A stretch of DNA of 64,000 nt from Gossypium raimondii (taxonomy: Eukaryota > Streptophyta > Magnoliopsida > Malvales > Malvaceae), in contig NC_068566.1 in NCBI RefSeq assembly GCF_025698545.1, positions 6,989,362-7,053,361 of the forward strand. Reading direction: 5' to 3'. Position numbers and translations under genes: made by a program. Under the pieces are notes generated by a model. The model was not told the DNA's origin. It ran no database searches and worked only from the letters and a program-made list of their open reading frames with translations. This document shows positions 15,651-37,321 of this stretch, piece after piece; positions within the stretch are counted from its first letter, which is position 1; the number at the start of each line of letters is the position of its first letter.

Positions 15651-16432
15651 AAAACTTTGGCAAATTAGAAATGGGTAGCGCAAACGCAGGCCCTAACTGC
15701 CACAAATTATGACGTAGGCTCTCCCACTTGGGGAAACCTTATGCAGGTGCAACAGTGCAATGAAAGCCACCAACCTAGGCCTTGAAAGTTCTCTGAGGTA
15801 ACTTTGACAGCATGTAAGTCAGCCTGCTCAACGTCCATATGTTCCACGGATCCTATCACAATCCTACAATCTTAACCTCCATAACGCTTAAGGAGAAGAA
15901 ATACAAGTAGTATATCACCTCTTGAATCTCGTAATACCCCCCACCATTCCCTGCATTTCCAAACATTTCAACTCAAGGTACATTCACAATAAACAAAAAT
16001 CAACATAGAAGGATGCCACCTAGAAACTGAATTCCCTATCCTATGCATGAGACCTACCTTGCATGTCTTGGATTATGAACTAAAATTCCATCCATCCAAG
16101 CTAAACTCGACAAGGTCCTAGTCTATCCATTTCTCTTTCAAGATTAGCCTTCACCAGGCAACAACTAGCCCAATCTCCCCAAAGCAGAAGAAAGTATGAA
16201 AACTTGCAGAGTGGTCTCAACAATATGATATACCCAATGACAGAGACGATTTTGGATTACCAACCTCAAAAATCTAATATTGAAGCTGTGGTGAAGATAC
16301 TAAAAAAGTTTTACTCTAATGGGACTTATATAAAGTGATTGTATTACACAATTTGGTTATTACATCACTGATTGAGTTTCATCACTGAATTGACTGACAA
16401 GTCGTACAAAAGATTTGGAACTAGAATTGGTA
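15651..16432. other. Spacer between duplication units
   Basis: No gene, RNA or mobile element is recognised. Some phrases (gatgccacctagaaactg, ccacccatcacag) are unique in the window. Confidence 0.4.
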
Positions 16433-16562
16433 TGGGGGCATTCAACAAGAAGTACCCTTCCAAAAATTAGCGTATGCCGCTTAGGGTGGCGAGCACACGG
16501 TATTCTTTAGTAAAAGGCGAAAGAATAGTTCGCTCTGTGCTCACCACACGGCTCCGTGAGTT
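16433..16562 (-). ncRNA. U5 spliceosomal snRNA, copy 1
   Basis: U5 snRNA aligns the exons in the spliceosome through its invariant loop I. On the minus strand the RNA has a long stem-loop closed by pairing of 16536-16547 with 16486-16497. An inner 8-bp stem (16520-16527 with 16501-16508) presents an 11-nt loop CGCCTTTTACT (16509-16519), the U5 loop I. Downstream is the Sm site AATTTTTGG (about 16460-16468) and a 3' hairpin ending in ATGCCCCC. Length is about 130 nt; both ends are estimates, the 5' end from TATA spacing. The 3' hairpin is weaker than in copy 2 (GGGTAC against ATGCCC). A TATA box and a one-mismatch USE lie upstream. Expression cannot be judged. Confidence 0.9.
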
Positions 16563-17921
16563 TGAAGCTCTGCTGCAAGTTGCTTTTATAAGCATAAGGT
16601 GATGCTGCTACCTGCTTTTCCAGAGCCATGTGGGACTTCACTTTATGGTAATTTAATTTGAAGCCTTCACTCTTTTTAAGTTTTATCCATTTGTATTGTA
16701 GATTTGCTATCAAATCAAGCTTTTAAGTTTATCATCCCCAAAGTAAGAATAAACTCTGCTCTCATACTTAGCACCACGTGATTCATGATGTTAGATATTG
16801 GAACTCTAAACAGAGTTGAGAATAGAGATTATTCAGTGATTTCTTTTGAAACTGAATAATAGAGCTAAGAACCTGTAACTGAATGCTAGCTTTAAGTGAA
16901 ATTTTCTGCAAGCTAGAGGGAAATTTAGCAGTAACCATTTCTTTTCTCTAAAACAGAAGGTGTCCGAAAATAGAATGACTAATGGGGATTAATTTCAAAC
17001 TGTTTGGGACAATATGGTGGAAAACTAGATTGGAAGCAATGTCTAGAGTAGCTTGATTGTAACAAAATAACTTCATAGGTTGAGGAAGTAGGTTTATCAG
17101 ATTAACAAACATTGCTAAAACCACAAGGTCAGTGAGTGGAAGCACCAATCAATGGCCATTAGGTTTAGATTTCCTAGTTGTATATCAAGTAAACAGCCAG
17201 ATTTCACAGTTCAGGCTTTATCTTTCATTTCATTGAAGAGGGATCCATTGCTTCTATTTTGTCATGCCCATCTCATTGGTGAGCACTCTCAGCCTCTTAA
17301 GCAAACTAGATATAAGCTCAAATCAGAATTTGAAAAGAATTCAGTGTCACTTAGAAAGGTCTGGCTACCACCCCTCTTGATATTGAAGCACTGGTGAAAT
17401 TACAATCTTGGGCTCAAAGAGAACAAAGCTGGGATTGAGAGATTTCTTCACTTTGGGAAAACATTTCCAGGTGATTGATGTTCAAAAGGTATACGAACTA
17501 GAACAAAGCTGGGATTGAGAGATTTCACCACTATGGTTTTTGGTTACATTTCTTCGCTAATTTGAAGAAGAAACTAGTAAAATATCCATCTATTCATATT
17601 ACTGAACTAGAACACAGTTGCTTGCATTTGGTCATGGGAAAATCGAAAGCAAAGCAGTCAACGTGATCAAGTTCAATGGCAAAAGATTTAAACTGCTAAA
17701 TTGGAAGCTGACAACTGAAGCTTATTCCAAGAATCCATCCAAACAAGTTAAAGCTCCAATCGATTTCCAGCATTTTCCTTCGACAATGTGTTCGACAAAC
17801 TTATTAAGCGTGATACAGAACTGAAGGTGGAAATACCAAATCTTTAATACAAAGAATTCCCAACATTGGTTATTCCTACGGAATAGGGAAGTGTAGAAAA
17901 GCTTAAGAACTTGTATCGGAA
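16563..17921. repeat. Duplication unit flank of U5 copy 1
   Basis: 16640-17400 is the upstream flank shared with the other U5 units (ctttatggtaatttaatttgaag, ctgctctcata-ttagca, aagctagaggg-aaatttagcagtaacca). 17400-17921 holds a local direct repeat 'gaacaaagctgggattgagagattt' (17420-17446 and 17502-17526). No protein gene is supported; several ORFs here are shadows. Confidence 0.55.
16583..16636 (-). promoter_or_regulatory. Pol II snRNA promoter of U5 copy 1 (TATA + USE)
   Basis: On the minus strand, GTCCCACATGG (16626-16636) matches the plant USE RTCCCACATCG with one mismatch, and TTATAAAAG (16583-16591) is the TATA box. About 34 bases separate them. Plant Pol II snRNA genes use this longer spacing; Pol III U6-type genes use about ten bases less. 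Confidence 0.85.
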
Positions 17922-18052
17922 TGGGGGCATCCAACAAAGAATGCCCTTCCAAAAATTGGCGTATGCCGCTTAAAGTGACGAGCACACGGTATTCTTTAGT
18001 AAAAGGCGAAAGAATAGTTCGCTCTGTGCTCATCACACGGCTCCGTGAGTTA
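17922..18052 (-). ncRNA. U5 spliceosomal snRNA, copy 2
   Basis: Same architecture as copy 1, with the best-formed 3' end of the four: GGGCAT and ATGCCC can pair perfectly after the Sm site AATTTTTGG. In the long stem the pair that is G-C in copy 1 is A-T here (17978 with 18033), a compensatory change that keeps the helix. Loop I and both inner stem arms are unchanged. The USE has one mismatch. The 5' end is inferred from TATA spacing. Of the four, this copy has the most intact RNA fold. Confidence 0.92.
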
Positions 18053-18071
18053 AAAACTTTGCTACAAGTTG

Positions 18072-18124
18072 CCTTATAAACATAAGGTGAAGCTGCTACT
18101 TGCTTTTCCATGGCAATGTGGGAC
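18072..18124 (-). promoter_or_regulatory. Pol II snRNA promoter of U5 copy 2
   Basis: Minus-strand USE GTCCCACATTG (18114-18124, one mismatch) and TATA box TTTATAAGG (18072-18080), with about 33 bases between them, the Pol II spacing. Confidence 0.85.
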
Positions 18125-19649
18125 TTGACTTTATGGTAGTTTGGTTTGAGTCGCGCTCTTTTTTTGTCCACTCAAATGTTGAATTACTGTTAACCCAAGC
18201 TTTTAATTTCTTGGAGGATTAGAACTTGTCATCCCAAAGTAATATGAAAAAATGCTGCTCTCAGAGTTAGCACGACGTGGTTCATGATATTAGATATTGG
18301 AAGTCCCAAATTTTTCTCTTCATTTTTATTTGTTTATGATTATTCAGTGATTTCTTTTGAAATTGAAGAGAGCTTAAGAACCTCGAACGAATGCTTTCCA
18401 AGTAAAATTTTTGCAGGCTAGAGGAATTAGCAGTAACCATCTGTTGAAAATTGACCAACCATGCTGCTGTGATAATTTTTGTTGAAGAGCATGCAGCTTG
18501 TAAACATGCTGCAGCTGGTATGCTTGCGGCAATAGCAAGTTTTTTGTTTAGGTACATTGTAATTAATCTTAGTTGAAAATGAACAAGCTGATGACAGCTT
18601 GATATGTTTAGGTGAATGATGTGTTTAGTTGGCTTGTTTAGTGTACAAGCAATGTTTCACAACTTACTAGGCTGAGTAGTTGTGTTTGGTGGAGAAAATT
18701 GTCTATAAAAGACATGTATTGTTTTATTAATGGTAATGAAAAATCAATGAAAATCAGTTTTTCATTCCTTGCTGCACGTTTGTGAGCAAGTAAAATATTT
18801 TTTGCATCTTGCTACTTTGTTCTAAGTCCTGTTTTCTTCTTTAGCTGCTGTAAAACGCCAACACCTTCTCTTTACTTTAAATCGGCTGTTGTCCCCAAAT
18901 AAAATGACAAATGGCAATCAATATCAATCGGTTTGGGATAACAATACATCATGGAAAACCTGATTGGATGCAATGTCTAGGGTAGTTTGATTGTAACAAA
19001 ACAACATAGTGAATGCAAACTTGAACATTTACAAATAAATACAGCAAGTCCAATCTAGACCACTAATAGATAGTAGCAAACATGGAAGTTAATCGACTGC
19101 AACTAGTTGCAAATAGTGGTTGGTTTCTTTGGAAATTCATTTAAAACTGGTGGATGCAGTTCATCAAAATTAACAAAAAATTGCTAAAACTACAAGGTCA
19201 GTGTACTGGTGGAAGGACCAATCAACGGTTTTTTTTATCTAGTTTTTCTATAGGAGGCAATGCTTCCCTGAGTATTCAAGTTTTAAGCATCTTTCTAAAC
19301 CATGAAGTAAAAAAAGACTGAGAATGTTTATGTAGGACGCAGAACTTCTGCATTCAAAAACACTTTTATTGCTTGGCTTTGCTGTACTTGATAGACTTCC
19401 AACTAGAAGCAACTTCATGCATGGCACTGTCAAGACCACTGAATGAATGTGCACCATGCAGCACTGAAGAGGAAACTACAGATCCATTTATTATATTTTA
19501 AACGTCAATTCTCGAAACAGGTTTAGGATATGGTTCTTCAAGTATGTGAAGCTTGTCCTCAAGCTATGTGCTTATCTGTGGGATTTGGCAGGAGAGGGAT
19601 GGAAGATTGGGTAGAAGTATGGAGTTTTTCAGGGTGGTCACTGTCGCTG
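18125..19649. repeat. Duplication unit flank of U5 copy 2
   Basis: Aligns by eye along most of its length to 37322-38870 upstream of U5 copy 4. Shared landmarks are ggtttgggataacaatacat (about 18930 and 37740) and ccatgcagcactgaagaggaaact (about 19460 and 38670). 18470-18850 is not shared and may be a separate insertion. No protein gene is supported. A copia element interrupts the unit at 19650. Confidence 0.6.
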
Positions 19650-20169
19650 TGTTGGTGCAAAGAGGCAGCAGCAGACTGTTTTGGTCTTGCTTGGATAGCA
19701 AGCCTCGAGCCTTGCTAAAGAAACAAACTCAGAAACAAAGCAGAAAATGAAACTAGCTAGTGAAGAACAAGAAGGAGAGAGAGAGATTGAATGAAAGTGA
19801 GCTGATATTTTTCATTAACCCACCAACAAGGCATTAAGCCATTACATACATTAGTCAACAAGTAAAACAAACAAGTAATCACCTAATCAATTACCTAACA
19901 CCACTAATTTGCATTGAAACTTACAAGATTAGCTTGTACAACTTGCATTGCTGATTTTTCAATCAATCAATACCAAAACATTTACCTACTTAGTTCAACA
20001 TGAACTAAATTACAAAATAATCAAAAAGCAACCAAAAACACCAAGTGGATAGGCAACATTAAGCTTCAGGCTTTAGTTTCTGCAGGCCAAGGCTCGAATG
20101 CCTGCAACGTATTCTTCTGCATGGCCACCTTTGCATGGGAAGCTGGTTGCATGGGAACTAACTTTAACA
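19650..20169 (-). repeat. 3' LTR of the copia element
   Basis: 520 bases, starting TGTTGGTGC and ending TAACA on +. Differs from the partner LTR at three sites (near 19717, 19742 and 20086). Confidence 0.95.
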
Positions 20170-23100
20170 CTCCTCCTTAGTTTCTATGCTGGTTACGCCT
20201 AGCTTCCCTTTTAATTTTATAAACCTTGACACATTGAGTGCCTTGGTAAAAATGTCTGCAATTTTCTCCTCCGAATTGCAATGAACCAGCTCGATTTCAT
20301 GAGCTTGTTCCATCTCCCTTATAACATGTAATTTAATATTGAAGTGCTTGGTTCTGCCATGGAAGATGGGATTCTTTGCAATTGCAACAGCAGATTTGTT
20401 GTCACAGTAAATCTCTGTTGCTTCTTCTTGGTTTTGGTTTAAATCAGCCAAGATTTTTCTAAGCCATATGGCTTGATTCACAGCAGATGCAAAGAAGAAA
20501 CATATTCAAACCTGCATTGTTGATTGTGCCACCGGACTTTGTTTCTTAGAACTCCAAAAAAACATGCACGAGCCAAGACTAAATGAGTATCCGGATGTGC
20601 TCCTCATATCATCACTCGATCCACCCAATCACTATCGACATATCCTACTAACTTCATGTTTTCAACCCTTTTGAACATTACACCATGATTGATGGTGCCT
20701 TTGATGTACCTCAGCACCCTTTTTGTTGCTTGAAAGTGCAGATCTTTGCAGCAATTCGTGTATCTGGATAGCACACTAACTGCAAACATAATGTCGGACC
20801 TTGTTGCGATCAAATACAATAGACTACCAATGAGACTCTTGTACATAGTCTCACAAACCGTTCACCGTTTCATACCTTGATAGCTTCATTCCAACAGCCA
20901 TTGGTGTGCTTGTTGGCTTGCAATTCTTCATTGAGAACTTGTTTAAGACCTTCATAGCAAAAGAACTCTGGCTGAGAAAGATTCCAGTTGCATTTTGTCT
21001 TACTTCCATTCCTAGAAAGTAATTCATTCTGCCTAGATCAGACATCTCGAACATTTTCATCATTTTCTTCTTGAAATCATGCAGCATATTTTTGTCTCCT
21101 CCAGTTACTAACAAATCATCAACATAGAGTGACAAGATAAGCTGAGTCTCAGCTTGATTTTTCTTCACATACAAAGTTGGTTCACTGGCACTTCTCTCGA
21201 ATTCCAAACTGAGCAAGTAGGAATCGATTCGAGCATACCAGGCTCGAGGAGTTTGTTTCAGCCCATACAAGGCCTTTTTTAACCTGTAGACCATGTGTTC
21301 TTTACCAGTGACTACAAACCCTTGAGGCTGCTCAATGTAGATCTCTTCTTCTAGGAAGCCATTGAGGAATGCAGACTTCACATCCAGTTGATGAATGGTC
21401 CACTGATTTTGAGCAGCCAAAGCAACTATCATTCTGACAGTGTCAAGTCTGGCTACTGGTGCAAAGGTCTCCAAGTAGTCCAAACCATACCTTTGGCTAA
21501 AACCTTTAACAACAAGCCTGGCTTTCAGCTTGTTAAGACTGCCATCTGCATTTTGTTTAGCTCGATAGACCCACTTCACTCCAATGGCCTTCTTTCCAGT
21601 AGGCTTATCAACCAACTCCCATGTTTGGTTCTTCTGTATCATGTTGATTTCATCAACCATAGCCTGCTTCCAGCCTTCATCAGACTCGGCCTCTTCAAAA
21701 CTGGTTGGTTCTGCTATAGCAATCTGTGCTCTTTCATAAATTTCATCCAAGGGCCTTGTTCCTCTCACAGGCACATCATCAACATCCATTTCAGGACCAA
21801 GGTGCTCGAATTCAGCTTGATTAGGTACCAGGTCCTCTGAAACTGCCTCTGGTTCATTCTTTTCCCAATTCCAGCATGCCTTTTCATCAAAGACAACATC
21901 TCTGCTTACCTGAACTTTGCATGTCAAGGGAATCCAGAACCCTATAGCCCTTTTTGTCTGAGCTATAGCCCACTAGGATACCTGGTTGAGCCCTTTTTGA
22001 GAGCTTGTCCCTCTTTGCTGCTGGTATTTGTGCATAGCACAGGCAACCAAACACCTTTAGGTGTGCCAATGAAGGTTTGAAGCCAAACCATGCCTCAAAA
22101 GGTGTCTTGTGTGCAAGGGCGTTGGTGAGAAGCCTATTTTGCAGATAAACGGCAGTGTTTACTGCCTCAGCCCACATGGTCTTGGGCAGTTTCTTCTCAA
22201 ACAGGAGACATCTGGCCATATCCATCAGACTTCTGTTCTTCCTTTCAGATACCCCATTCTGCTGAGGTGTGTAGACATTTGTAAGCTGGTGTTTGATGCC
22301 AGCATCATTGCAAATGGCCTGGAACTGAGTTGAAGTGTACTCAGTGCCATTGTCTGACCTTATCGATTTCATCTTGCAGCCTGTTTCTGTTTCTACAGCA
22401 GTTTTAAACTTCACAAACACTTGAGCTACCTCAGACTTGTGTTTCAAGAAGAAAGTCCAGCAAAACCTTGTTAAATCATCAATGAAGAGGATGAAATACC
22501 TGTTTTTGCTGAGTGATTCAGTCCTCATAGGTCCACATACATCAGAGTGCACCAGCTGCAATCTTTCAGTGGCTCTCCATGCTGAGTTTGTTGGGAATGG
22601 CAGTCTTGCCTGTTTTCCCATCTGGCACACTTCACACACATCATCATGCTCCACTGAGCTGGTGAAGTTCTCTGCTAAGCCTTCTTTGGCCATTTGAGCC
22701 AATGATCTGAAGTTGGCATGCCCGAGCCTTTGATGCCAGAGCTTGGAATCATCTGTAGAGGCTGTGTATGCTGACATTGAGTCATTTGACCAATGGACCT
22801 CAAAGCATTTATCAGTCATTGTGACTGTCATAAGGCTTGATCCACTTGGATCAGCTATGTGGCAGTGTTTGTCCTTGAACACAACAGAATAGCCTTTCTC
22901 AAGTAGTTGAGCAATGCTAAGAAGATTTCTGTCAATCTCAGGTACCAGCAGGACATTTGAAATGACTTTGTTGCCTGTAGGAGTACATATCAAGCACTTC
23001 TCCTCTTCCTTGACTTTTATAAACCGACCATTTCCAACCTTAACCTTAGTTTCTGACTTCATCCAAGGTTTTGAACAAAGATGCATCTGGTGACATGTGG

Positions 23101-24112
23101 TTGGTGCAACCAGCGTCCATAGCCACCCTTTTGAGCATTTCTTCTCGTGACTAAGCAAGAAACAAAGAAAGACCTGCTCTTCTTGGTCATTACTGTCCTC
23201 AGCTACTCGAGCTTCAACCTTTAGTTGTTGAAATTGGCTCTGCCTTGGCTTGGTTTTGTTTTTGTAAACCCTCTCAACATGGCCTTTCTTCTTGCAGTGT
23301 TGACATACTGCATCTGGCCTAAACCAGCATCTATCTTCTGGATGTCCAGATCTTCTACAATATCTGCAGGGTTGATCATTACTCCTTGCAGCATCAGGCT
23401 TAGGCCTGCTTTTCCAACGCTTTTTGCCTCTTGGAGCATTGGTGCTCGAGGCCTCTCTTGTCTTGGCTTGAAATGCACCTTCCTGGTGGTCTTCAGCTCT
23501 GCTAGCTCTCCTTTGTTCCTGAGCATAGAAGGTGTTGATTAGCTCAGTCAAAGAGATGCTAGTAAGGTCTCTTGAGTCCTCTAGGAAGGATATCTTTGCC
23601 TCATATCTCTCAGGCAAAGTGGAGAGGACTTTCTCCACTATTCTTGCCTCATCAAAGTGCTCACCAAGGAGCCTTATGCTGTTAACCACTGCCATGATTC
23701 TATCTGCATACTGCTTCACTGTTTCTTCTTCCCTCATCTTCAGATTCTCGAAATCCCTTCTTAAATTCAACAGCTGCTGTTGCCTTGTCCTTTCAGTGCC
23801 TTGAAACTCCTCCTTAAGCTTATCCCATGCCTGTTTTGGAGTCTCACATGCCATAATTCTGGTGAAGATGACATCTGACACACAGTTCTGGATGCAAGAC
23901 ATGGCTTTGTGCCTTTTGGTCCTTTCATCGGCATGTTGCCTGATCTGAGCTACTGTGAGATTGGCCCTCAGTGGTGCTGGCTCAGCATCTGTGTTGACAA
24001 CTTCCCACAGATCAAAAGCCTACAGGTAAGTCTTCATCTTTACCAGCCATATGTGGAAGCCTTCCCCATTGAAGACTGGTGGGGCTGCTGGTGAAAATCC
24101 TGAAGAAGCCAT
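20170..24112 (-). pseudogene. Copia gag-pol polyprotein, interrupted
   Basis: The start is the ATG at 24110-24112 (MASSGFSPAAPPVFNGEG, typical copia gag N-terminus). An in-frame TAG at 24020-24022 interrupts it. The frame resumes and runs open to 21887: UBN2-type gag, a CCHC knuckle CRYCRRSGHPEDRC, and a second knuckle whose last Cys is Tyr. Next come a protease zone whose catalytic D-A-G-C motif is readable only in another frame (about 23050-23130), LWHQRLGHANF pre-integrase, and the integrase core with HSDVCGPM, SDNGTEY and QQNGVSERKNR. A frameshift near 21900 moves to the RT frame (20851-21927, with LDVKSAFLNG and SLYVDDLL). Further shifts near 20848 and 20500-20600 separate RT from RNase H (IYCDNKSAVAIAKNP). 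At least four lesions make it non-autonomous. Confidence 0.93.
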
Positions 24113-24168
24113 CAGGTTCCTTGATTTGAAGCAACAGGTCCACTAAGACAAAGGCTCTAGATACCAAT

Positions 24169-24688
24169 TGTTGGTGCAAAGAGGCAGCAGCAGACTGTTT
24201 TGGTCTTGCTTGGATAGCAAGCCTCGAGCCTTGCTGAAGAAACAAACTCAGAAACAAAGCAAAAAATGAAACTAGCTAGTGAAGAACAAGAAGGAGAGAG
24301 AGAGATTGAATGAAAGTGAGCTGATATTTTTCATTAACCCACCAACAAGGCATTAAGCCATTACATACATTAGTCAACAAGTAAAACAAACAAGTAATCA
24401 CCTAATCAATTACCTAACACCACTAATTTGCATTGAAACTTACAAGATTAGCTTGTACAACTTGCATTGCTGATTTTTCAATCAATCAATACCAAAACAT
24501 TTACCTACTTAGTTCAACATGAACTAAATTACAAAATAATCAAAAAGCAACCAAAAACACCAAGTGGATAGGCAACATTAAGCTTCAGGCTTTAGTTTCT
24601 GCAGACCAAGGCTCGAATGCCTGCAACGTATTCTTCTGCATGGCCACCTTTGCATGGGAAGCTGGTTGCATGGGAACTAACTTTAACA
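24169..24688 (-). repeat. 5' LTR of the copia element
   Basis: 520 bases, identical in length to its partner. The primer binding site lies immediately inside it at 24153-24166. Confidence 0.95.
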
Positions 24689-25024
24689 CGCTGGCAGGGC
24701 GTAGACAAAGGGATGATAGATAGCAATTTTCTTTTTATGTTTATTTCCTCTTTACAATAACAGAAACTAATAAATAACATGGTGAAGATTTTGAAGATAA
24801 AGATTTGAAGTTTATTGCATCTATGTAAACATTCCAAGAATTAATAGAGGGATTATAGGAGTACTCAAAAGAAATATGATATTTGAAGTTGCTAGAAACT
24901 CGAGATCCTGCTTTGAATCTAGAGTTGTATACCCAACAATTACGAGTTCGCTCTGTGCCATTTTCAAGACTCTCAGCAAGGCATTTTGTTAATTGAAACC
25001 CGTGAAGAAAACCTTAGATTGTAT

Positions 25025-25153
25025 TGGGGGCACTCAACAAAGAATGCCTTTACAAAAATTGGCGTATGCCTCGTAAAGTGGCGAGCACACGGTATTCTTT
25101 AGTAAAAGGCGAAAGAATAGTTCGCTCTGTGCTCACCACACGGCTCCGAAAGT
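25025..25153 (-). ncRNA. U5 spliceosomal snRNA, copy 3
   Basis: Loop I, its inner stem and the 12-position outer stem match copy 1, including the G-C version of the covarying pair (25081 with 25136). The Sm site reads AATTTTTGTAAAGG, diverging just after the U-run. The 3' hairpin is weaker (GGCAT with GTGCC). The lead-in before GAGCCGTG is altered, and the single-stranded link AAGCGGC reads ACGAGGC. The upstream USE has a consensus ACATCG end. It may be active or drifting; its flanks are more diverged than those of copies 2 and 4. Confidence 0.85.
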
Positions 25154-25176
25154 TTGATGCCAAGCTACGAATTGCT

Positions 25177-25227
25177 CTATAAACATTAGGAGAAGCTGCT
25201 ACTTGCTTTCCAGCTGCGATGTGGGAA
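25177..25227 (-). promoter_or_regulatory. Pol II snRNA promoter of U5 copy 3
   Basis: Minus-strand USE TTCCCACATCG (25217-25227; one mismatch at the first base) and TATA box TTTATAG (25177-25183), 33 bases apart. Confidence 0.82.
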
Positions 25228-27309
25228 TTGATCACTAAGCAATTTCCAACAAAAAAGTTGGGACTTGGGAGTCTAGAGATTATCGAGTGTTTTCTTTTTT
25301 GAAACTGAAGAAGAAAGCTAAGAACCTGTAACGAATGCTTTAAAAGTGACATTCTAAAGGGAAAATTAGCAGTAACCATCTCTTTAATTATTATATTTCT
25401 CTAAAGGTTCCCTAAAAGTATTCAGTGAATTTTAAGGATTGTAACATATGAAGAAAAGAAAATTGTGGTAACTTAGTAACTGCACATCCAGAAAATAGTA
25501 ACCGGTCGAGTGGTGGGAAGAAATGATAAGTATGGTTTGTTTTATTAAGATTTAATGGGTTACTAATTCTTTTTTATGTAAATTTGGTTTGGTGGTAATT
25601 TTCTCTGGTGATATTAATTTAGTATAAAGTTTTAATGTTATTATAAACACAACCACAATAAAAATATAAAATTACTATCAACAAGTGGTTCGGTGTAATG
25701 GTAAAACACATTGCAATCTTAAGGAGTACTGTAGGTTTGAATCGTGGAGACATATTGTTGGGAGGGGCAATCACGAACCATAAACATAAATCGTAAAATG
25801 GACATGCATAATATCAAATATATATAATTACTTAATACCAACATATATAAGATTAATTTACACATTAACCATATCGAATATATCGATTACCTTCTTAAAG
25901 TTCATTTAGGCGGAATGAAAAATTATTATTTGGTTGATGAAATGTGATATTATCATCATGATATTATCATACCGGTATGTACAAATCCAATCTTAAATTG
26001 ATATATAACATAAGTTCCATTTCGATCAAAATTTCGATGCATTATGACCAATCCAATGTGTTTCAACTCATTTTGATTAATAATGAATTGTACCTATATG
26101 TATCGACTGTCTTGATTGATACAAAATTTACCGTTTAATTTCTTTCATAATCGATTTAAACTTAAAATATAATTATTAAATTAAATTGTTAAACTTAATT
26201 AATAATTTTAAAATTTATATGGGATGACATTTATATATAATATATAAAAATATAAAATAAAACGGTAATAAAATGAATAAAGAAAACACGATACATCACT
26301 TGATACATACTTAGGAATGAAGCTACTCGACAAATAATAACAAAAAAAAAACTGGGAAAATATGCAAAAATCTATGCTTATAGAATGACCACATGTTGGG
26401 TACCTGGATTTAACCAAACTAATGCATGCAAATCTAAAATCGGTGAGTTGACAGCAAAAACTATTAAAGTCCAATTTAGAATATAATTTCTAGTGTAAGA
26501 AGATCTGATTGATCGGATACTGTTTCAGGTTAATTCATTAGAAACAGTGTAAACCAATAGACAAACTGCTATTAATATATAAAAGAAAAAAATTGTAACC
26601 CCTCCAGACGTAGTGTACAAAATAAATATTGTAGCAATCCCCACAACATGGATACAAACAAGTTGATACACAGGAACTAAAGCAAACTCCAATATGATGA
26701 AAACAGCATAAATGGTTATGTTACTCTACGGATTCTTTTCATTGGTAATGAAAAAGTAGTACTGAATGACAGAATGGAGCTAGCCATTACACTATTACTG
26801 TTGGGTTTTTAGCAAAGGAAGAGAGCAAAACAGATAAAATTAGCAATCCAATTTGAGTTGCTATTTTTCACCACATTTTTTCAATTTAAATTATACAATA
26901 TATATTAGTTTATTCATGACATAACTAATCCCACTAATACAATTTTGAAAACATAAAAATTTAATTTGTGCACAAACTGATTTGTATCAATCAGTACCTA
27001 AACATATCATAAATCTACCAACTAAAAATGGTTTACACGTAATATAACATGTGCAACATGCACCAAAAATATATCCATGCAACCCACGGATCTTCAATCC
27101 GCCAATAGCTTCACAATTCACCATACAGTGCACAGCTTGGGCATCGGCGAGCTTATTCTTACTTGTTGCATATGAAGAGTCCACCAATATTTTTTACTTT
27201 CAGACTTTCTATCGAATGACTTAAAAGTCTGAACTGTTCGCCAAATGTACTCGTCACTACATGGTTGACCATCTCGCAACAATTACTTTATATTGTCTAA
27301 GGAGCATTC
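25228..27309. other. AT-rich intergenic region with a short U5-unit flank
   Basis: 25228-25400 is the U5 unit flank (gtgggaattgatcactaag, agaacctgtaacgaatgcttt). 25.5-27.3 kb is unique AT-rich DNA. It holds a candidate tRNA-derived SINE at 25.68 kb and otherwise nothing I can assign; the ORFs at 26.2 and 27.0 kb show no known domain. Confidence 0.45.
25683..25800 (+). mobile_element. Candidate tRNA-derived SINE head
   Basis: Box A GGTGTAATGG (25692-25701) matches the Pol III consensus RRYNNARYGG exactly. Box B GGTTTGAATCG (25733-25743) is close to GGTTCGANNCC. The boxes lie 31 bases apart, as in tRNA-derived SINEs. The 3' end and target-site duplication were not found, so the extent is a guess. 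Confidence 0.4.
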
Positions 27310-28431
27310 TTGATGAATTTGAGATCTAATCCTTCACTCTTTGCAAATCAATGCATGGTCTAATACCCTAAAGTTAGTTAAGAAGCTCCCTATTTTCAAA
27401 AGTTACTAAAGTATATCTGGCGTCCATAATCATACTACATTTTTATCATCAACATAGATCTCTGTAGCGCAAGTACAAATTAATATTTATTTATGTTAAA
27501 GTTTGGCAGCATCTTTTGTTAATAAAAATCAAAGGTGGCATCATGGCATGTAAGTTTCCAGTATGATATCAAACACCATTAGTAAAACCATAAACTGAAA
27601 TAACACTGATTTGTTTATTTTATTAAAACCCAGTAACTGTAGGAAGGATATTCCCTAAAATTAGTGACATGGTGAAAAAGCGAAAGCATGAAAAGTTTCC
27701 ACAAAGTCTAGGCACTTGGACAAGTTAGAAAACCTCAAACAACCCATGACAGAACTACAAGGAACTCCATAGACAAGAGTTGTATATGTTTTTCCCCTTA
27801 AAGTTAACTCAAAGATAGAGTTGAAGTGAATGGAATATAAGATGTTTGGAGGCAAGCTAGGATTAAATGGTACAAAATACTTTATTTTTCATCATATCTC
27901 ATAAATGTAATCGATAAGAAAGTTTTATAATGTAAGATTGCAAATACTATGACCTTTCTTTTAAACACAGAAAAAACTTGTCAAGGTGCCTGCAAAGTGT
28001 TCTAAATACGCAAACCACTTAGAGGCTATGAGCAATATCAATCATCCAGTGTTCTGTAACACATTACTGAGTTAACCATTCCAGTTTCATTTCCAAAACT
28101 AAACTAATTTGAATGATGTTGCCAAAAGTAACATCAACGAGAAACCAACATTTCTCTTATAATCTCAGACTTCATCCGACAAGCCAAGTATGAAAGCATT
28201 AGTAATAAGGACAAGTGAAAGCTATCACATGATTAACAACAATATCAATGTAATTAAATCTAGATATAACATCATGATTCTGATAGGTGTAAACAATATA
28301 AAACATTTGCAAATAAGAAGAATTCATTTTCTAGCTCTTTTCCACATAAAAACCAAGTTGAATATGGGGGAGTAATTCTTGGAACTCAAATTGCACATAA
28401 AATTTAAAAGCAGTCTAACTAAAACAGAAAG
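27310..28431. repeat. Duplicated ISY1-downstream block, copy A
   Basis: Aligns by eye to 38870-40030, the DNA 3' of ISY1 (shared: ctagtgacatggtgaaaa, gcatgaaaa-gttcccac, aaaaacttgttaa, caacaatatcaatgtaa). It ends exactly where a copia LTR begins at 28432. A second copy starts at 30777. Confidence 0.75.
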
Positions 28432-30776
28432 TGTTGAAATATGTGAAACCCATATATTTTGGGATATATTTTAAATTTCTTTAGGTAGATAAGTCTTAGA
28501 ATAAATCATTTGAGATATTCTAGGATTATTTTATTTTATCTTTTAGTAGTTTATTAGAATAAGAAAATTATTTTTCCAATTAGGTTATGACTCTTTTCTC
28601 TATTTAAATTCAGTTCTTTAGTTAATAAAATACAGAACAATTTTATTAAATACTCTCTTGAAAACTTTCATGGCAACTGAGTTAGGTTAAATCTACAATA
28701 ATATCATGGTTAAAACAACTTTCACTGGAGATAAGAGATTCAACAATCAAATAGAGGTAGAAAGTTCTACCGTTGAAACAACTATCGAGAGTACAATGAC
28801 TCAAGGGACAGAGGCATCTCACCTCTCTTTTCAACTAACATCTCACAAGTTGAATGGCAAGAATTATCTATAATGGTCGCAGTCCGTAAAGTTAGCAATT
28901 GACGGGCGCAACAAGCTAGGTTATTTAACTAGAGAAGTCAAGTAACTACAGGTGGGCGATCCAAAGATGAGCAAGTTGAGGTCAAAAAATTCTATGATAA
29001 TTGCGTGGCTTATTACTTCCATGGAAGCATCCATAGGTAAACCTTTTTTTTTCTCTCGACTGTTAAAGATGTTTGGGACGCTGTAAAAGACACCTATTCA
29101 GATTTAGAAAACGCTTCACAGATTTTTGAGTTAAAAATAAAACTCAGGAAAGCTAGACTAGATGAAAAGGAAGTTACTTTTTGTTATAATGGGATGATGT
29201 CTCTTTGGCAAGAATTGGATCAATGTTGTAATGATGAATAGGAGTGTCCCGGAGATGGTGTAAAAGCTATGAAAAAAGAAGAGAATGAACGAGCTTATTT
29301 ATTTCTGACGGGTTTAAATAAAGAATTTGATGAAGTGAGATCTCGGATCTTAGGAAAAAACTGTTTCCAAGACCCCGTGAGATTTTTTCTAAGGTTAGAA
29401 GAGAGGAGACAAGGAGAAAAGTAATGTTAAGGCTAGGATTTGAAGCTAATGATGATAATTCTGCTCTTGTAATTGTTAAAAATAATGATGATAGTGAAAA
29501 AAGAAAAAACCTAGGTGCGATCACTGCAAAAAATATTAGCACACTCGAGAAACATGTTGGAAGCTTCATAGAAAATCGACGAATGGAAAAAAGAAGAGTG
29601 GCAATGGTCGTGGTTCACAATCAGGGGATAGCAGAGCTTTCCAAACAACTAATGAAAATTATGAGGGCCAAAGTTCTCTAGAAGGATCTCTATTCACTAA
29701 GGAACAATTAAAGCATTTACACAAGCTTTTTCAATCACCACAGTTTCGAATGAATTCTTCTGTTCCTAACTCATCCAATAATCCTTCTTCCTCTTTTGCC
29801 TAATCAGGTACTGATTGTTTTTTTTTTTAGTGTCAAGCATTGTAAAACAAATACGTGGATCGTTGATTGGAGCTAGTGATCATGACTAGTAGTCATTTTA
29901 TTTTCTCAACTTACACATATTGTGTAGGAAACAAAAAGATCAAAGTAGCAGATGGGTCATTCTCAACAATAGCCGGGAAAAGCACTATTAAAATTTCGCC
30001 TTCATTGGTTTTACATGATGTTTTACATGTGCCAAATCTAGCTTGTAATCTCGTTTCCGTCAATAAATTATCTCAATCATCGAATTTTCATGTTATATTT
30101 AACTCATCTATGTGTAAATTTCAAGACATGGTCTCAGGGAGGATGATTGGCAATACTAAAGAATCTGGTGGAATTTACTTTCTTGATGATGACCATTTAA
30201 GTCAACCAACAACTACTTTATGTTTAAATTCTGTTTCTAGTTTTGATAAGGTTATGATTTGGCATTATAGGCTTGGACATCCTAATTTTTACTATTTAAG
30301 ATATTTTTTATCTAATCTCTTTAAAAATAAAAGTCCTTCTTTATATCACAATGAATATGTGAATTAACTAAACATCATCAGTTATTCTTTCCACCTAAAA
30401 AATATAAAGCTTCTAAACCTTTTTCATTAATTCATAGTGATGTTTGGAGACCTTCGAGAGTCTTAACTTTTTCAGGAAAACGTTGGTTTGTCACATTTAT
30501 TGATGATCATACTCGCATTTTTTGAGTGTTTTTATTAAAAGATAAGTCTGAAGTTAAAAATGTGTTTCAATCTTTTTTTGCTATGGTGAAAATACAATTT
30601 GGTGTGAGAATAGAAGTATTTTGGAGTGACAATGGTTGGGGAATTTTTTAGTGACCAATTAGGTGTTTTATTAACCAAATATGGAATAGTCCAACCAACA
30701 TCTTTGGAAGTAACTAGAGCCTTGATGTTCACTAGTCAGGTACCTCGTTATCTTTGGGGCAAAGCCTTGTCTTGGT
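28432..30776 (+). mobile_element. Truncated Ty1/copia element (family shared with 32079-36189)
   Basis: A 5' LTR (28432-28670, TGTTGAAATATG to ACTTTCA) is followed by a decayed primer site, gag, protease and part of integrase on +. Homology stops near 30768 in the integrase core, and ISY1-downstream DNA begins at 30777. RT, RNase H and the 3' LTR are missing. The empty site is seen in the second block copy near 31570 (aaccaaaaca-aaaatgtt). Confidence 0.85.
28706..30775 (+). pseudogene. Copia gag-protease-integrase fragment
   Basis: Starts with MVKTTFTGDKR. Gag motifs include LNGKNYL, then a stop (TAA) before WSQSV, DVWDAVKDTYSDLENASQ and LFLTGLNKEFDEVR-like text. Stops and shifts are frequent. 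The frame at 29867-30366 carries the protease flank (SHFIFSTYTY, KVADGSFSTIAGKS) and pre-integrase WHYRLGHPNFYYL. Integrase text (FVTFIDDHTRI, SEVKNVFQSFFAMVK) continues to LWGKAL. Compared with the relative at 32.1-36.2 kb it retains gag, which that copy has lost. Confidence 0.8.
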
Positions 30777-31614
30777 GAAAACCCAGTAACTGTAGGAAGG
30801 ATAGTGACGTGGTGAAAAGCTAAAGCATGAAAAGTTTCCACAAAGTCTAGGCACTTGGAAAAGTTAGAAAACCTCAAACAACTTATGATATAACTACAAG
30901 GAACTCCATAGAAAAGAGTTATATATGCTTTTTCCCTTAGAGTTAACTCAAAGATAGAGTTGAAGTGAATGGAATATAAGATGTTTGGAGGCCAGTTAGG
31001 ATTAAATGGTACAAAATACTTTATTTTTCATCATATCTCATGTATGTAATCAATAAGAAAACTTTATAATGTAATATTGAAAATACTATGACCTTTCTTT
31101 CAAACACAGAAAAAACTTGTTAAGGTGCCTACAAAGTGTTCTAAATATGCAAACCAGTCAGAGGCTATGAGCAATATCAGACATCTAGTGCTCTGTAACA
31201 CATTACTGAGTTAACAATTCCAGTTTCATTTCCAAAACTAAAATAATCTGAATGATGTTGCCAAAAGTAGCATCAACGAGAAACCAACATTTCTCTTATA
31301 ATCTCAGACTTCATCCGACAAGCCAAGTATGAAAGCATTAGTAATAAGGACAAGTGAAAGCTATCGCATGATTAACAACAGTATCAATGTAATTAAATCC
31401 GGATATAACATCATGATTCTGATAGGTGTAAACAATATAAAAATTTGCAAATAAGAAGAATTCATTTTCTAGCTCTTTTCCACATAAAAACCAAGTTGCA
31501 TATGGAAGAGTAATTCTTGGAACTCAAATTGCACATAAAATCTAAAAGCAGTCTAACCAAAACAAAAATGTTATATAAATTGAAATTATCCAATTCTTTA
31601 TTAAAAGATGCAAC
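30777..31614. repeat. Duplicated ISY1-downstream block, copy B
   Basis: Begins at aaaacccagtaactgtagg, matching 27624, and continues past the copia insertion point of copy A without interruption into an ISY1 C-terminal fragment. The junction with the copia has a few bases of filler (cttggtg) between the two homologies. Confidence 0.8.
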
Positions 31615-31893
31615 ATTACCAGCATCTATTCCACCGATGAATATTAAGCATGTCCTCGTCTTCACTCTGCTCCTCCAACAACCCTTCACTCCCATACTTA
31701 CTTAAAAGCTCCATCTTCTTCCTTTCCACAACCATCCTCTCATTCTCTTTCTCATGAGATAATAGCACGTGCATGACAAATTCCCTCTCCTTATCTTTCT
31801 TCTCTTTCTCCTTCCTCTCCCTCCTATCCTTCTCTTCCACCACATCATCTTTTTCCTTAAACAACACTTTCTCACTGAAACATCATCAGTGGA
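31615..31893 (-). pseudogene. ISY1 C-terminal pseudogene fragment
   Basis: The minus-strand frame encodes a close match to the last third of ISY1: a VEE/RRERKEKEKKDKEREF charged helix, then ERMVVERKKMELLSKYGSEG and a C-terminus ending MLNIHR, where the stop is replaced by WNRCW. It differs from the intact gene (40093-40992) at many residues (VLLSHEKENE for VPLPDEKEIE) and begins near the MLF/VLF residue at about 205 of 299. No N-terminal part is present. It marks the edge of a duplicated block and has no evident function. Confidence 0.85.
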
Positions 31894-32078
31894 CACAGTT
31901 TAGGTATCAGTCTATTGACATAAATTCTCTTGTTAAACTTAGCTTTTCAACATTTTATTTCACATATGGTCTTTTTTTTTTACTTTGAAATAGATGTAAC
32001 CATCTCTTTACTTTGAAACTGTTGCTGTCCCCAAATAAAATGACACATGGCAATCAATAATATCAATTGGTTTGGGAT
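31894..32078. repeat. U5-unit fragment split by a copia insertion
   Basis: 31990-32078 matches the U5 unit flank (ctgtccccaaataaaatgac, ggtttgggat). The matching continuation (aaaatacatcatggaaaa) lies at 36195 beyond the copia. Confidence 0.65.
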
Positions 32079-35000
32079 TGAACGTTTCAAAGAGAGCATT
32101 TAATAAAACTATTCTATCTTTTATTAACTAAACAATTGAATTTAAATAGAGAAAGATTCATAACCTAATTGGAAAAATAATTTCCTTATTTTAATAAACT
32201 ACTAAAAGATAAGGAAAATAATTAGATTATTCTGATAGACTACTAAAAGATAAAATAAAATATTCCTAGAATATTTCAAATAATTTATTCTAAGATTTAT
32301 CTACCTAAATAACTTTATAATATATCCCAAAATATATGAGTTTCATATATTTCAATACCCTCCCTCAAGTTGGTGCATAAATATCAATTATGCTCAACTT
32401 GCTTACAAGAAAATCAAAGCTTGTCTTAGAGAACCCTTTGGTGAGTATGTCAGCAATCTATTATTTTGAAGGAACAAACAGCATGCACACTTGGCCTTCT
32501 TCAATCTTCTCCTTGATAAAGTGTCTATTAATCTTAACATGTTTAGTTTTGTCATACTAGACTAGGTTGTGAGCAATACTAATGACAACTTTGCTATCAA
32601 AGTACAACTTCATTAGTGAACTTATTGGTTTCCTCAACTCTTCCATAATTCTTTTTAACCACATCATTTCACAAATTCCTTGAGCTATTGATCTAAACTC
32701 AGCCTCTGAACTATTTCTTGCTACAACATTTTGTTTTTTGCTTCGCCAAGTCACAAGGTTTCCCGAAACAAATGCACAATATCCTGATGTAGATCTTCTA
32801 TTTGTTATTGAGCCTGCCTAGTCTGCATTTGTATAAGTTTCAATTCCTTTTTGTTCAGATTTCTTGAAGAATAAACCATTTCTAGGTGAACTCTTCAAGT
32901 ATCTCAGAATCCAAAACATTGTTTCTTCGTGTTCCTCCATTGGAGAGTGCATAAATTGACTCACTAAGCTCACTGCAAAAGCTATGTATGGCCTTGTATG
33001 TGATAAGTAAATTAACTTACCGACTAATCTTTGGTACTACCCTTTATCAACTAATCGACCTTTTTTTTTTCTAAATTTTACATTTGGATCAATTGGTGCG
33101 TCAGTTGGGCGGCAACCACTCATCCCAACCTATTTTAAAAGATCAATCACATATTTTTTCTGAGAGACCACAATACCCTTCTTTGATCGAGCAACTTCCA
33201 TTCCAAGAAAGTATTTCAAGGGACCCAAGTCTTTGATCTCAAACTCCAATACTAGATGCTCATTGAGACACCTTATTTCATCCACTTCATCTCTTATAAG
33301 AATGATATCATCGACATAAACTATAATAACTGCTATTCTACCTCTTTGTGAGTGTCGATAGAACATTGTGTGAGCAGCTTGCCCTTGTGAGTAACCTTAT
33401 TTTTTAACAACTTGAGTGAACCGTTCAAACCAAGCTCGAAGAGACTGCTTTAGACCATACAAAGATTTCCTGAGATTATATACTCAAGTTCCAAATTTTT
33501 CTTCAAAACCTAGAAGAGGATCCATGTAAACTTCTTCTTCAAGTTTCTCATTTAGGAAAGCATTCTTCACATCTAGCTACTGTAAGGACCAATCAAGATT
33601 AACAGCAATTGATAAAAGAACTCTAATAGAATTTAATTTGGCTACTAGAGTAAATGTTTCAAGATAATCTATCCCGTATGTTTGAATGTACCCTTTAGCC
33701 ACTAGTCGGGCTTTGTATCTATCTAAAGATCCATCCAGTTTGAATTTGGTTGTGAACACCCATTTTCAGCCCACAGTTTTTTCTCTACAAGTAATTCCAT
33801 TATTTCCCATGTACCTATTTTTCAAGAGCGTACATCTCCTCTAAAATAGCCTCCTTCTATTCAGGAACATGTAAAGCACCTTTCACATCTTTGGGTATTT
33901 TCACAGTATCGAAACATGAAAGAAAGGCTGGAAATATCGAAGACAAGGCTTTATAGGACACAAATTTAGACATGGGATACTTGACAACATTTCTAACACA
34001 TTTTCTTTTAACAATTAGAATATCTAAACCAGAAAATTCATTAGTTGGATTATGAGCTTTACCTGGACTTTTGACAAGATCTTGTGGGTCAAATTCTTGG
34101 TGATGAATCTGGTGGATTCCACTTTCTTGATTTTGATTTCTTCTTGAGTAAACAATTAAGTCCTTTGTTTGTTCTTTATTCTTATGATCAAACTCTACAC
34201 CTTCATACTCATTTTCATTAACAACATTAACATCATTAATTTCTGTGTTAATCATAAATTCACCTTCCCCATTATTAGAATCCCTATGTTGTATATTCTT
34301 AGTGTTTTCTTGATCAATTATAGAATCTTCCTTACTATAATTCCTTCCTTGAAGATTAGAATCAAAGTAAGTTGCATTTCAACAAATATGACATCCATGG
34401 CAACAATAATCTTCCTATCAATTGGATCATAACATTTGTAACCCTTTTTATTAGAAGCATAGCAAACAAAGACACATTTTTTTGCTCTAGGATCTAGTTT
34501 ACCTTGGCTATGAAGATGAACAAAAACACTACACCCAAAAACTCGGAGGGATAAATCTGTGATCAATTTAGAGTTAGGAAAGTTATCTTTAAAAGACGGA
34601 AAGAAGTTCTATAGTTTAGAGTTTTACTAGGCATTCTATTAATAATATATGTAGTTGTTAACAAGGCTTAGCCCCAAAGATAATGTGGTACCTGACTAGT
34701 GAACATCAAGGCTTTAATTACTTCCAAAAGATGTCGATTTTTTCTTTCTGCAACCCTATTTTGTTGTGGTGTATTTGTACAAGAGCTTTGGTGGACTATA
34801 CAATGTTTGGTTAAGAAAACACCTAATTGGTCACTAAAAATTTCCCCATCATTGTCACTCCGAAGTACTTCTATTCTCACACCAAATTGTGTTTTCACCA
34901 TAGCATAAAAAGACTGAAACACATTTTTAACTTCAGACTTATCTTTTAATAAAAACACCCAACAAATGCGAGTATGATCATCAATAAATGTGACAAACCA

Positions 35001-36189
35001 GTGTTTTCCTGAAAAGTTGAGACTCTTGAAGGTCCCCAAACATCACTATGAATTAACGAAAAAGGTTTGGAAGCTTTATATTTTTGAGGTGGGAAGAATG
35101 ACCAATGATGTTTAGCCAATTCACAAAATTCACAGTGATATGAAGAAGAACTTTTATTTTTAAATAGATTAGTTAACAAATATCTTAAATAGTAAAAATT
35201 AGGATATTCAAGCCTATAATGCCAAATCATAACCTTATCCAAACTAGAAGCAGAATTTAAACATAAAGTAGTTGTTGGTTGACTTAGATGGTCGTCGTCA
35301 AGAAAGTAAATTCCACTAGATTCTTTAGCATTGCCAATCATCCTCCCTGAGACTATGTCCAGAAATTTACACATAAAGGAGTCAAATAAACATGACAATT
35401 CGAGGACTGGGATAATTTACTGACGGATATGAGATTACAAGCTAGATTTGGCACATGGAAAACATCATGTAAAACCAAGGAAGGCGAAATTTTAACAGTA
35501 CCTTTCCCGGCTATTGCCGAGAATGACCCATCTGCTACTTTGATCTTTTTATTTCTTGCACAAGGTGTGTAAGTTGAAAAAAGAAAATGACTACTATTCA
35601 TGTGATCACTAGCTCCAGAATCAACGACCCACGTGTTTGTTTTACAAGGCTTGACATTGAAAAAAACAGAAAAATCAGTACCTGATTGGGCAAAGGAGGA
35701 AGAAGGATTATTGGATGAGTTAGGAATAGAAGAATTCATCCGAAATTGTGGTGATTGAAAAAGCTTGTGTAGATGCTCTAATTGTTCCTTAGTGAATGGA
35801 GACTCTTCTAGAGAACTTTTGCCCTCATAATTTTCATTAGTTGTTTCAATGGTAAAACTTTCTTCCTCTATTTGATTGCTGGATCTCTTATCTCCAGTGA
35901 AGGCTATTTTAACCATGATGCTACTAGAGATTTAACCTAGCTCAGATACCATGAAAGTTTTTAATAGAGCATTTAATAAAATTGTTCTCTCTTTTATCAA
36001 CTAAACAATTGAATTTAAATAGAGAAAATAGTCATAACCTAATTGGAAAAATAATTCCCTTATTCTAATAGACTACTAAAAGATAAAATAAAGTATTCCT
36101 AGAATATCTCAAATGATTTATTCTAAGATTTATCTACCTAAATAACTTTGAAATATATCAAAAATATATGGTTTCACATATTTCAAATA
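32079..36189 (-). mobile_element. Ty1/copia element with TSD GGGAT
   Basis: LTRs at 32079-32357 and 35952-36189 flank a 4.1-kb element. GGGAT repeats exactly at 32074-32078 and 36190-36194, and the empty site is seen in other U5 units (ggtttgggataacaatacatc). The primer site TGGTATCTGAGC (35940-35951 on -) resembles initiator tRNA-Met, and the polypurine tract is at about 32358-32366. The LTRs differ by many substitutions, and the 3' LTR carries a roughly 40-base internal duplication, so it is older than the 19.65-kb copia. Gag is largely deleted. Confidence 0.92.
32380..35916 (-). pseudogene. Copia polyprotein lacking gag, decayed
   Basis: The first frame (35353-35916) begins MVKIAFTGDKRSSNQ, then jumps within about 20 codons to text that lies after gag in the sister copy (SSLEESPFTKEQLEHLHKLF), so gag is deleted. 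The protease active site WVVDSGASDHM is intact. Then come pre-integrase WHYRLEYPNFYYL (LGH changed to LEY), integrase FVTFIDDHTRICWVF with SDNDGE and PQQNRVAERKNR, RT pieces KARLVAKGY and IIVYVDDII, and RNase H (RNSSEAEFRSIAQG, LYFDSK). At least five frame breaks separate these. Integrase and RT are each damaged at motifs. It is non-autonomous. Confidence 0.88.
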
Positions 36190-37108
36190 GGGATAAAATA
36201 CATCATGGAAAATAAAGAATGGATGCAATGTCTGGGGTAGCTTAATTGTAACAAAACAACATAATGAATGCAAAACTTGAACATCACAAATAAATACAGC
36301 AAACCCAATCTAACCTTAAAACAAATAATATAACCTTATTGTCTTTCATAATTTGGTTTTCCATCACACTGGTTGAGTTTATAACTGAATTAAGTGACTG
36401 AACTGCAAATATTGACATTTGTAGGTTTTGTGATAGAAAACCACGCTTGTAACTTGTTTCTTCTGTTTAACTACGGTCTACGGGTGTATTTGGTCATTGT
36501 CACTAGCTCGCTCCCGCTGAACCTCTTTTTGCTTTTAATATCCCACTGAACCCCTTCAATTCTATGGCATTGGGATATACGATGAAATTCTATAGCATTT
36601 TTCCACCAGACATATATTCGTCTACACCCTCACCCGATTCCGAGACTGTCTTTTAGCGGACTAATGCTCTATTTATCTCTCCTAACTTCAAATTTAATCT
36701 GTTATATGTGAGGAACTATGTTTGATGAATGTGTTCGGGAAAAATTATATAATCTTTTGCTAGCTATATTAAATCCTGGCTGGAAAATCTCGTCTCCTTT
36801 CTTATTAATACTCAGGCACATTATAGTTTATTCACTCACCCAACACTTCCTAGACCTTTCTTTCCCGATCAAAACTTGACAGTGGCATTATGGCAGAGAA
36901 TATAAAAAATGGTTGCTCCTTCAATTGGCTTTTAACACTCTAGATATGAGGAATTATAGACGAGGGCAGGGACATCAGAAAGTACACTTTGGATATCAGT
37001 TTGTTGACTTAATTTCGCTTGTTATCTTAAAAACTTCTCAGCATTATATATAAATTTCCCGTTCTTACCAAAACATATGTTCCTAGAACATAAAAAATCC
37101 TTTGGTAC
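36190..37108. other. Intergenic DNA left of U5 copy 4
   Basis: 36195-36320 continues the split U5-unit fragment. 36970-37060 resembles 31880-31970. No gene is seen. Confidence 0.45.
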
Positions 37109-37121
37109 TTATACTGGAATG
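37109..37121 (-). terminator. snRNA 3' box of U5 copy 4
   Basis: On the minus strand CATTCCAGTATAA fits the plant Pol II snRNA 3'-end signal CA(N)3-10AGTNNAA, immediately after the RNA's 3' hairpin. The other copies have only degenerate matches. Confidence 0.6.
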
Positions 37122-37249
37122 GGGGCATCCAACAAGTAATACCCCTCCAAAAATTGGCGTATGCCGCTTATAGTGACGAGCACACGGTATTCTTTAGTAA
37201 AAGGCGAAAGAATAGTTCGCTCTGTTCTCATCACACGGCTTTGTGAATT
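37120..37249 (-). ncRNA. U5 spliceosomal snRNA, copy 4
   Basis: Loop I and the inner stem are identical to the other copies, and the covarying outer pair is A-T (37176 with 37231), as in copy 2. The 3' hairpin is strong (GGGGTAT with ATGCCCC). Unlike the others, one outer-stem base is changed (37226 T, where the rest have G), creating a mismatch, and the 5' lead reads CAAAGCC for CGGAGCC. Its promoter is the best of the four, with a perfect USE and a 3' box. ISY1 lies 2.8 kb to the right on the same strand. Confidence 0.88.
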
Positions 37250-37269
37250 TTTCACCATTTACAAGTTGC

Positions 37270-37321
37270 TTTATAAATAGGAGGAGAAGCTGCTGCTTGC
37301 TTTTCCGGTGCGATGTGGGAC
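37270..37321 (-). promoter_or_regulatory. Pol II snRNA promoter of U5 copy 4
   Basis: A perfect minus-strand USE GTCCCACATCG (37311-37321) and TATA box ATTTATAA (37271-37278), with 32 bases between them. Confidence 0.9.

What the first reader, a model, noticed from the sequence alone, without database searches (positions are those of the whole stretch)
16433..37321. Array of four U5 snRNA genes with Pol II USE/TATA promoters
Four minus-strand copies share a long stem-loop with the U5 loop I CGCCTTTTACT, an Sm site and a 3' hairpin. Each has a plant USE 32-35 bases from a TATA box, the Pol II spacing. Gene predictors tend to miss these and call false ORFs instead. The array arose by segmental duplication, and a fifth unit at 14.9 kb kept only a decayed USE.
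Basis: partly seen in the sequence, partly recalled or inferred. Interest (0 to 1): 0.8.

Follow-up and report, generated by a model that had tools for sequence, protein, structure and literature searches.

The report
Four U5 snRNA genes near ISY1
This stretch of a plant genome carries four duplicated copies of an ordinary splicing RNA gene (U5) with standard plant promoters; the finding is correct but of a well-known kind.

Summary
Rfam's U5 model hits exactly four places, minus strand, at 88-95 bits against a cut-off of 40. The only four USE sites with at most one mismatch in the window start 81-83 nt upstream of these bodies, and the USE-TATA gap is 35 nt in all four, the plant Pol II type. 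Shared flanks and decayed units support duplication of a unit lying downstream of the splicing-factor gene ISY1. The 14.9-kb remnant is real and has no U5 body. Additions: g3 looks the weakest copy; a U1 pseudogene lies at 15.7 kb; a sixth unit is split by an LTR element; one ISY1 3'-end fragment and one flank-only copy exist. The genome holds at least 29 U5 loci, 18 of them spread over 452 kb on another chromosome. The window copies and three C11 copies form one subgroup, all seven with the 35-nt gap. Multicopy and partly clustered U5 genes with USE and TATA are described in Arabidopsis (PMC545797, passages). Ordinary: a new member of a known kind. Expression could not be tested.

The parts
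16437..16553 (-). U5 snRNA gene g1
   Evidence: RF00020 92.5 bits
16626..16636 (-). USE of g1, GTCCCACATGG (1 mismatch)
16583..16590 (-). TATA box of g1 (TATAAAAG)
17925..18042 (-). U5 snRNA gene g2
   Evidence: RF00020 95.0 bits
18114..18124 (-). USE of g2, GTCCCACATTG (1 mismatch)
18071..18078 (-). TATA box of g2
25028..25145 (-). U5 snRNA gene g3, the copy with most departures
   Evidence: RF00020 88.5 bits; changed Sm site, one broken basal pair, TATAGA, no 3' box
25217..25227 (-). USE of g3, TTCCCACATCG (1 mismatch)
25174..25181 (-). TATA-like box of g3
37123..37240 (-). U5 snRNA gene g4, nearest to ISY1; one mismatched stem pair
   Evidence: RF00020 88.2 bits; pair 15:60
37311..37321 (-). 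USE of g4, GTCCCACATCG (perfect)
37268..37275 (-). TATA box of g4
37109..37121 (-). 3' box of g4, CATTCCAGTATAA, exact match to CA(N)3-10AGTNNAA
   Evidence: an exact match falls in 2.7% of random 50-mers of the window
14960..15573 (-). decayed unit: USE region 14960-15012 and flank 15134-15573, no U5 body
15670..15805 (-). U1 snRNA pseudogene
   Evidence: RF00003 52.8 bits, cut-off 69.5, E 2.6e-10; degenerate 5' end; no USE-like site with fewer than 5 mismatches in 150 nt upstream
31996..36313 (-). sixth unit, flank only: 36190-36313 and 31996-32078, split by an LTR element (about 32079-36189)
   Evidence: unit pieces; 5-base repeat GGGAT at both ends of the insert
30778..31882 (-). ISY1 3'-end fragment and downstream flank
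   Evidence: blastn; tblastn 31634-31882
27318..28435 (-). copy of the flank downstream of ISY1 (no ISY1 codons)
40093..40992 (-). ISY1 gene, intact, no intron in the coding frame
   Evidence: PF06246 E 3e-93; the one uninterrupted full-length match of 7 in the genome
19650..24688 (-). copia-type LTR retrotransposon between g2 and g3
   Evidence: LTRs 518 of 521 identical; target duplication CGCTG; Pfam gag, integrase and RVT_2

Best explanation
An array of four plant U5 snRNA genes of the Pol II type, made by repeated duplication of a unit that lies downstream of ISY1. Shown: RNA structure, promoter elements and their spacing, shared flanks, decayed units. Inferred from established plant snRNA biology: USE and TATA direct Pol II transcription, the transcript is processed near the 3' box, binds Sm proteins and enters the U5 snRNP, whose loop I contacts exon ends. 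g1, g2 and g4 are probably active; g3 may be weak or decaying. The copies most likely add dosage and turn over by birth and death.
For: Four U5 model hits at twice the cut-off. The only 4 USEs with up to 1 mismatch, each at the same place, gap 35 nt. Bodies hold runs of 4 and 5 T, which by general knowledge would stop Pol III. Bodies are 88-95% identical while promoters are 78-86%; body better conserved in 6 of 6 pairs, Fisher p below 0.05 in 4 of 6. In 20 of the 29 genome copies 98.3% of stem cells pair and 17 cells carry changes on both sides, shuffled mean 5.0, 0 of 500 shuffles as high. Unit flanks are collinear.
Against: No expression data. The 3' box is exact only at g4 and absent at g3. 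g3 has an Sm change and a broken basal pair, g4 a stem mismatch. Three of four USEs have one mismatch. The four copies alone give no covariation beyond shuffles. In one search two of five measures did not exceed shuffles clearly (pairs changed on both sides 48 of 500; pair types 484 of 500).
Confidence: 0.9

Rival explanations
1. The window copies are mostly silent relics; the U5 supply comes from other loci such as C11 or C10.
For: At least 25 other U5 loci exist, some with a perfect USE. g3 shows several departures. Decayed units lie in the same array.
Against: Loop I, stem and USE-TATA spacing are kept in 4 of 4 while flanks diverge. g2 has the second-highest U5 score of the 29.
Confidence: 0.08
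2. The genes are transcribed by Pol III, since USE and TATA serve both polymerases in plants.
For: The two elements are shared by plant Pol II and Pol III snRNA genes (PMC9845283, passages).
Against: The 35-nt gap fits the wider Pol II spacing described there. All four bodies contain T4 and T5 runs.
Confidence: 0.01
3. The copies are an assembly artefact of one gene.
For: None found.
Against: Bodies differ at 6-14 positions pairwise, flanks by 14-22% in the promoter, and different elements lie between them.
Confidence: 0.01

Closest known systems
Arabidopsis U5 snRNA genes (PMC545797, passages read)
   Same: Multicopy U5 genes (14 there, at least 29 here), each with USE and TATA there; a tandem U5 duplication is reported.
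   Different: More loci here, a local array of four plus remnants, and a loose group of 18 on C10; some copies here lack a recognisable USE or intact loop I.
Arabidopsis U1-U4 and U2-U5 clusters (PMC545797, passages)
   Same: Different snRNA genes lying close together on one chromosome.
   Different: Here the neighbour of U5 is a U1 pseudogene. U2 and U4 linkage was not tested because the searches did not complete.
Linked U3-U5 genes of Euglena gracilis (PMC2784804, title and abstract start in the listing)
   Same: Multicopy U5 in genomic linkage groups.
   Different: Another lineage and another partner RNA.

Membership tests
U5 snRNA (RF00020) | Covariance score over the curated cut-off | tested here: met
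   4 of 4 at 88.2-95.0 bits, cut-off 40
U5 snRNA (RF00020) | Invariant loop I | tested here: met
   CGCCTTTTACT exact in 4 of 4
U5 snRNA (RF00020) | Sm site followed by a 3' hairpin | tested here: met
   AATTTTTGG in 3 of 4; g3 AATTTTTGT; hairpin predicted, 92.9% of cells paired
Plant Pol II snRNA gene | USE RTCCCACATCG | tested here: met
   1 perfect, 3 with one mismatch
Plant Pol II snRNA gene | TATA box with the wider Pol II gap | tested here: met
   35 nt in 4 of 4; rule from PMC9845283, passages; g3 reads TATAGA
Plant Pol II snRNA gene | 3' box CA(N)3-10AGTNNAA | tested here: inconclusive
   Exact in g4; looser form in g1 and g2; none in g3. Consensus from PMC5079582, passage. 11 of 29 genome copies exact
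Plant Pol II snRNA gene | Transcription by Pol II | not testable with these tools
   No RNA data
U1 snRNA (RF00003), the 15.7-kb element | Score over the cut-off and intact 5' end | tested here: not met
   52.8 bits against 69.5, degenerate 5' end; filed as a pseudogene

The most novel reading that the evidence does not exclude
The genome keeps two U5 subfamilies with different promoter geometry: a 35-nt USE-TATA gap in the four window copies and three C11 copies, and mostly a 33-nt gap in the C10 group and C4. They could be separately regulated U5 isotypes rather than mere dosage copies.
Probability: 0.1. Interest if true: 0.45.

Novelty: new member of a known kind. Interest (0 to 1): 0.2.

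Why it matters
It is a clean snRNA array, useful for annotation and for following birth and death of snRNA genes: a related single copy on C11, decayed units and a young retrotransposon give relative dates. It does not change the picture of U5 biology.

Tried and rejected
A U5 body at the 14.9-kb remnant: rejected, local score 15 against a shuffle mean of 16.6. A functional U1 at 15.7 kb: rejected. U5 relics in three other gaps: two scored below the shuffle mean; 31400-31996 scored 25 against a mean of 17.6 with 2 of 200 shuffles as high, not followed up. Covariation from the four copies alone: uninformative; redone with 20 of 29 copies, the nine left out being those at 73.4 bits and below. 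ISY1 beside other U5 loci: tblastn against 30 kb at each of two C11 sites and 20 kb at C3:2.43 Mb, C2:6.32 Mb and C4 gave nothing; the 7 genome-wide ISY1 matches are all on C2. In one search the mitochondrial ribosomal protein query was cut out of frame, so its absence says nothing. tRNA scan empty. ISY1 in viral contigs: none. U2 and U4 linkage and a DNA search for more U5 copies did not complete. An earlier count said 19 U5 hits on C10; the recount is 18.

Full report
What was checked. The bodies carry the exact loop I, the long stem and a 3' hairpin, and an Sm site. They fold better than dinucleotide shuffles, z -3.4 (g1), -5.8 (g2), -5.2 (g3) and -2.7 (g4); g4 has one mismatched stem pair.

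Promoters. The USE with at most one mismatch occurs four times in the window, starting 81-83 nt upstream of each U5 body (0.67 expected, 0 of 100 shuffles with four). At two mismatches the pattern is not special: 19 matches against 12.1 expected. The USE-TATA gap is 35 nt in all four. A review says that plant Pol II snRNA genes have these elements four helical turns apart and Pol III ones one turn closer (PMC9845283, passages). All four bodies contain T4 and T5 runs, which by general knowledge would end a Pol III transcript. The plant 3' box, CA(N)3-10AGTNNAA (PMC5079582, passage), is exact at g4 only; g1 and g2 have a looser form; g3 has none.

How good are the copies. Bodies are 88-95% identical and promoters (-1 to -85) 78-86%, with Fisher p below 0.05 in 4 of 6 pairs. 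g3 has a changed first USE base, TATAGA, an Sm site ending in GT, one broken basal pair and no 3' box. I read g3 as weak or decaying; this is inference.

Origin. Compared with the g4 unit, pieces of the same unit lie in order at g1, g2, g3, at the 15-kb remnant and at a further site that a later LTR element split. The duplicated sequence reaches back to the ISY1 3' end: one copy at 30.8-31.9 kb includes ISY1 codons, one at 27.3-28.4 kb only flank. These two are 92.5% identical to each other over 811 bp, so they share a later duplication. g4 lies about 2.9 kb downstream of the ISY1 stop on the same strand. A copia element sits between g2 and g3; its LTRs differ at 3 of 521 positions. On the far side lies a BolA-type exon on the plus strand.

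Genome context. The window lies in a 750.8-Mb assembly of 281 contigs. ISY1 is 98% identical to proteins of Hibiscus sabdariffa and Gossypium stocksii, so I infer a member of the Malvaceae; the species is not established. The U5 search scored 46 of 87,681 candidates and found 29 loci over the cut-off, a lower bound: 4 here, 18 on C10 within 452 kb, 3 on C11, 2 on C3, 1 more on C2, 1 on C4. Of these 29, 24 have a USE with at most two mismatches and 23 the exact loop I. In a FastTree tree of about 240 nt per locus, the four window copies and three C11 copies group together (1.0); the four window copies plus C11:824497 (0.94); g4 with C11:824497 (0.94); the 18 C10 loci (0.90). C11:824497 also shares the g4 flanks (81% over 571 bp, 74% over 465 bp, and 60 bp of the ISY1 flank at 95%), without ISY1 beside it. 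A simple reading is that several units existed before the C2-C11 duplication; the supports are moderate.

Spacing groups. All 7 loci of the window group have a 35-nt gap. Of the other 22, four have no TATA string in the range scanned. Of the remaining 18, 12 can be read as 33 (two of them with a second TATA), and six as 31, 32 or 36; four of those six have no recognisable USE, so their figure means little. This grouping is the basis of the novel case; it may be mere descent.

Structure across copies. In 20 of 29 copies (the nine lowest scores left out) 98.3% of stem cells pair (shuffled mean 95.8), and 17 cells carry changes on both sides (shuffled mean 5.0, 0 of 500 as high; slid versions 0-2). 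Two measures do not stand out: pairs with such a change (4; 48 of 500 shuffles as high) and further pair types (15; 484 of 500). The tool warns that shared descent inflates the shuffle comparison.

U1 relic. A sub-threshold U1 match at 15670-15805 (52.8 bits, cut-off 69.5) has a degenerate 5' end and no USE. In the genome 28 U1 matches were listed, 25 of them over the cut-off at 91-147 bits, and this one is 27th.

What is known. In Arabidopsis 14 U5 genes, all with USE and TATA, a tandem U5 duplication, one U2-U5 and seven U1-U4 clusters are described (PMC545797, passages). My searches listed no title on this locus; the library lacks most subscription papers and I read passages of three papers only, so this is no proof of absence. 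The nearness to ISY1, a splicing-factor gene, is most simply an accident of position: ISY1 is not beside the other U5 sites examined.

Noticed in passing
   Followed up: yes
G000 C10:56633790-57085869 (L016-L029): 18 U5 loci over 452 kb on both strands, several with broken loop I or no recognisable USE.
   Followed up: partly
G000 C9:32.65-32.68 Mb, C3:61.92-61.94 Mb, C184: Groups of U1 loci (5, 6 to 7 and 4 rows of the listing) apart from the U5 groups.
   Followed up: no
14233-14481 (+): BolA-family exon (PF01722, E 2.6e-17) on the far side of the array; a possible first exon near 12.2 kb was seen by eye only.
   Followed up: partly
43638-44378 (-): ORF with a sub-cut-off match to mitochondrial ribosomal protein L28 (PF09812, 21.8 bits, cut-off 28.4).
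   Followed up: no
G000 C2:41207974-41238770: Several broken ISY1 pseudogene pieces far from the window on the same contig.
   Followed up: no
27-36 kb: Fragments of a second copia-type family in both orientations among the duplicated flanks.
   Followed up: partly
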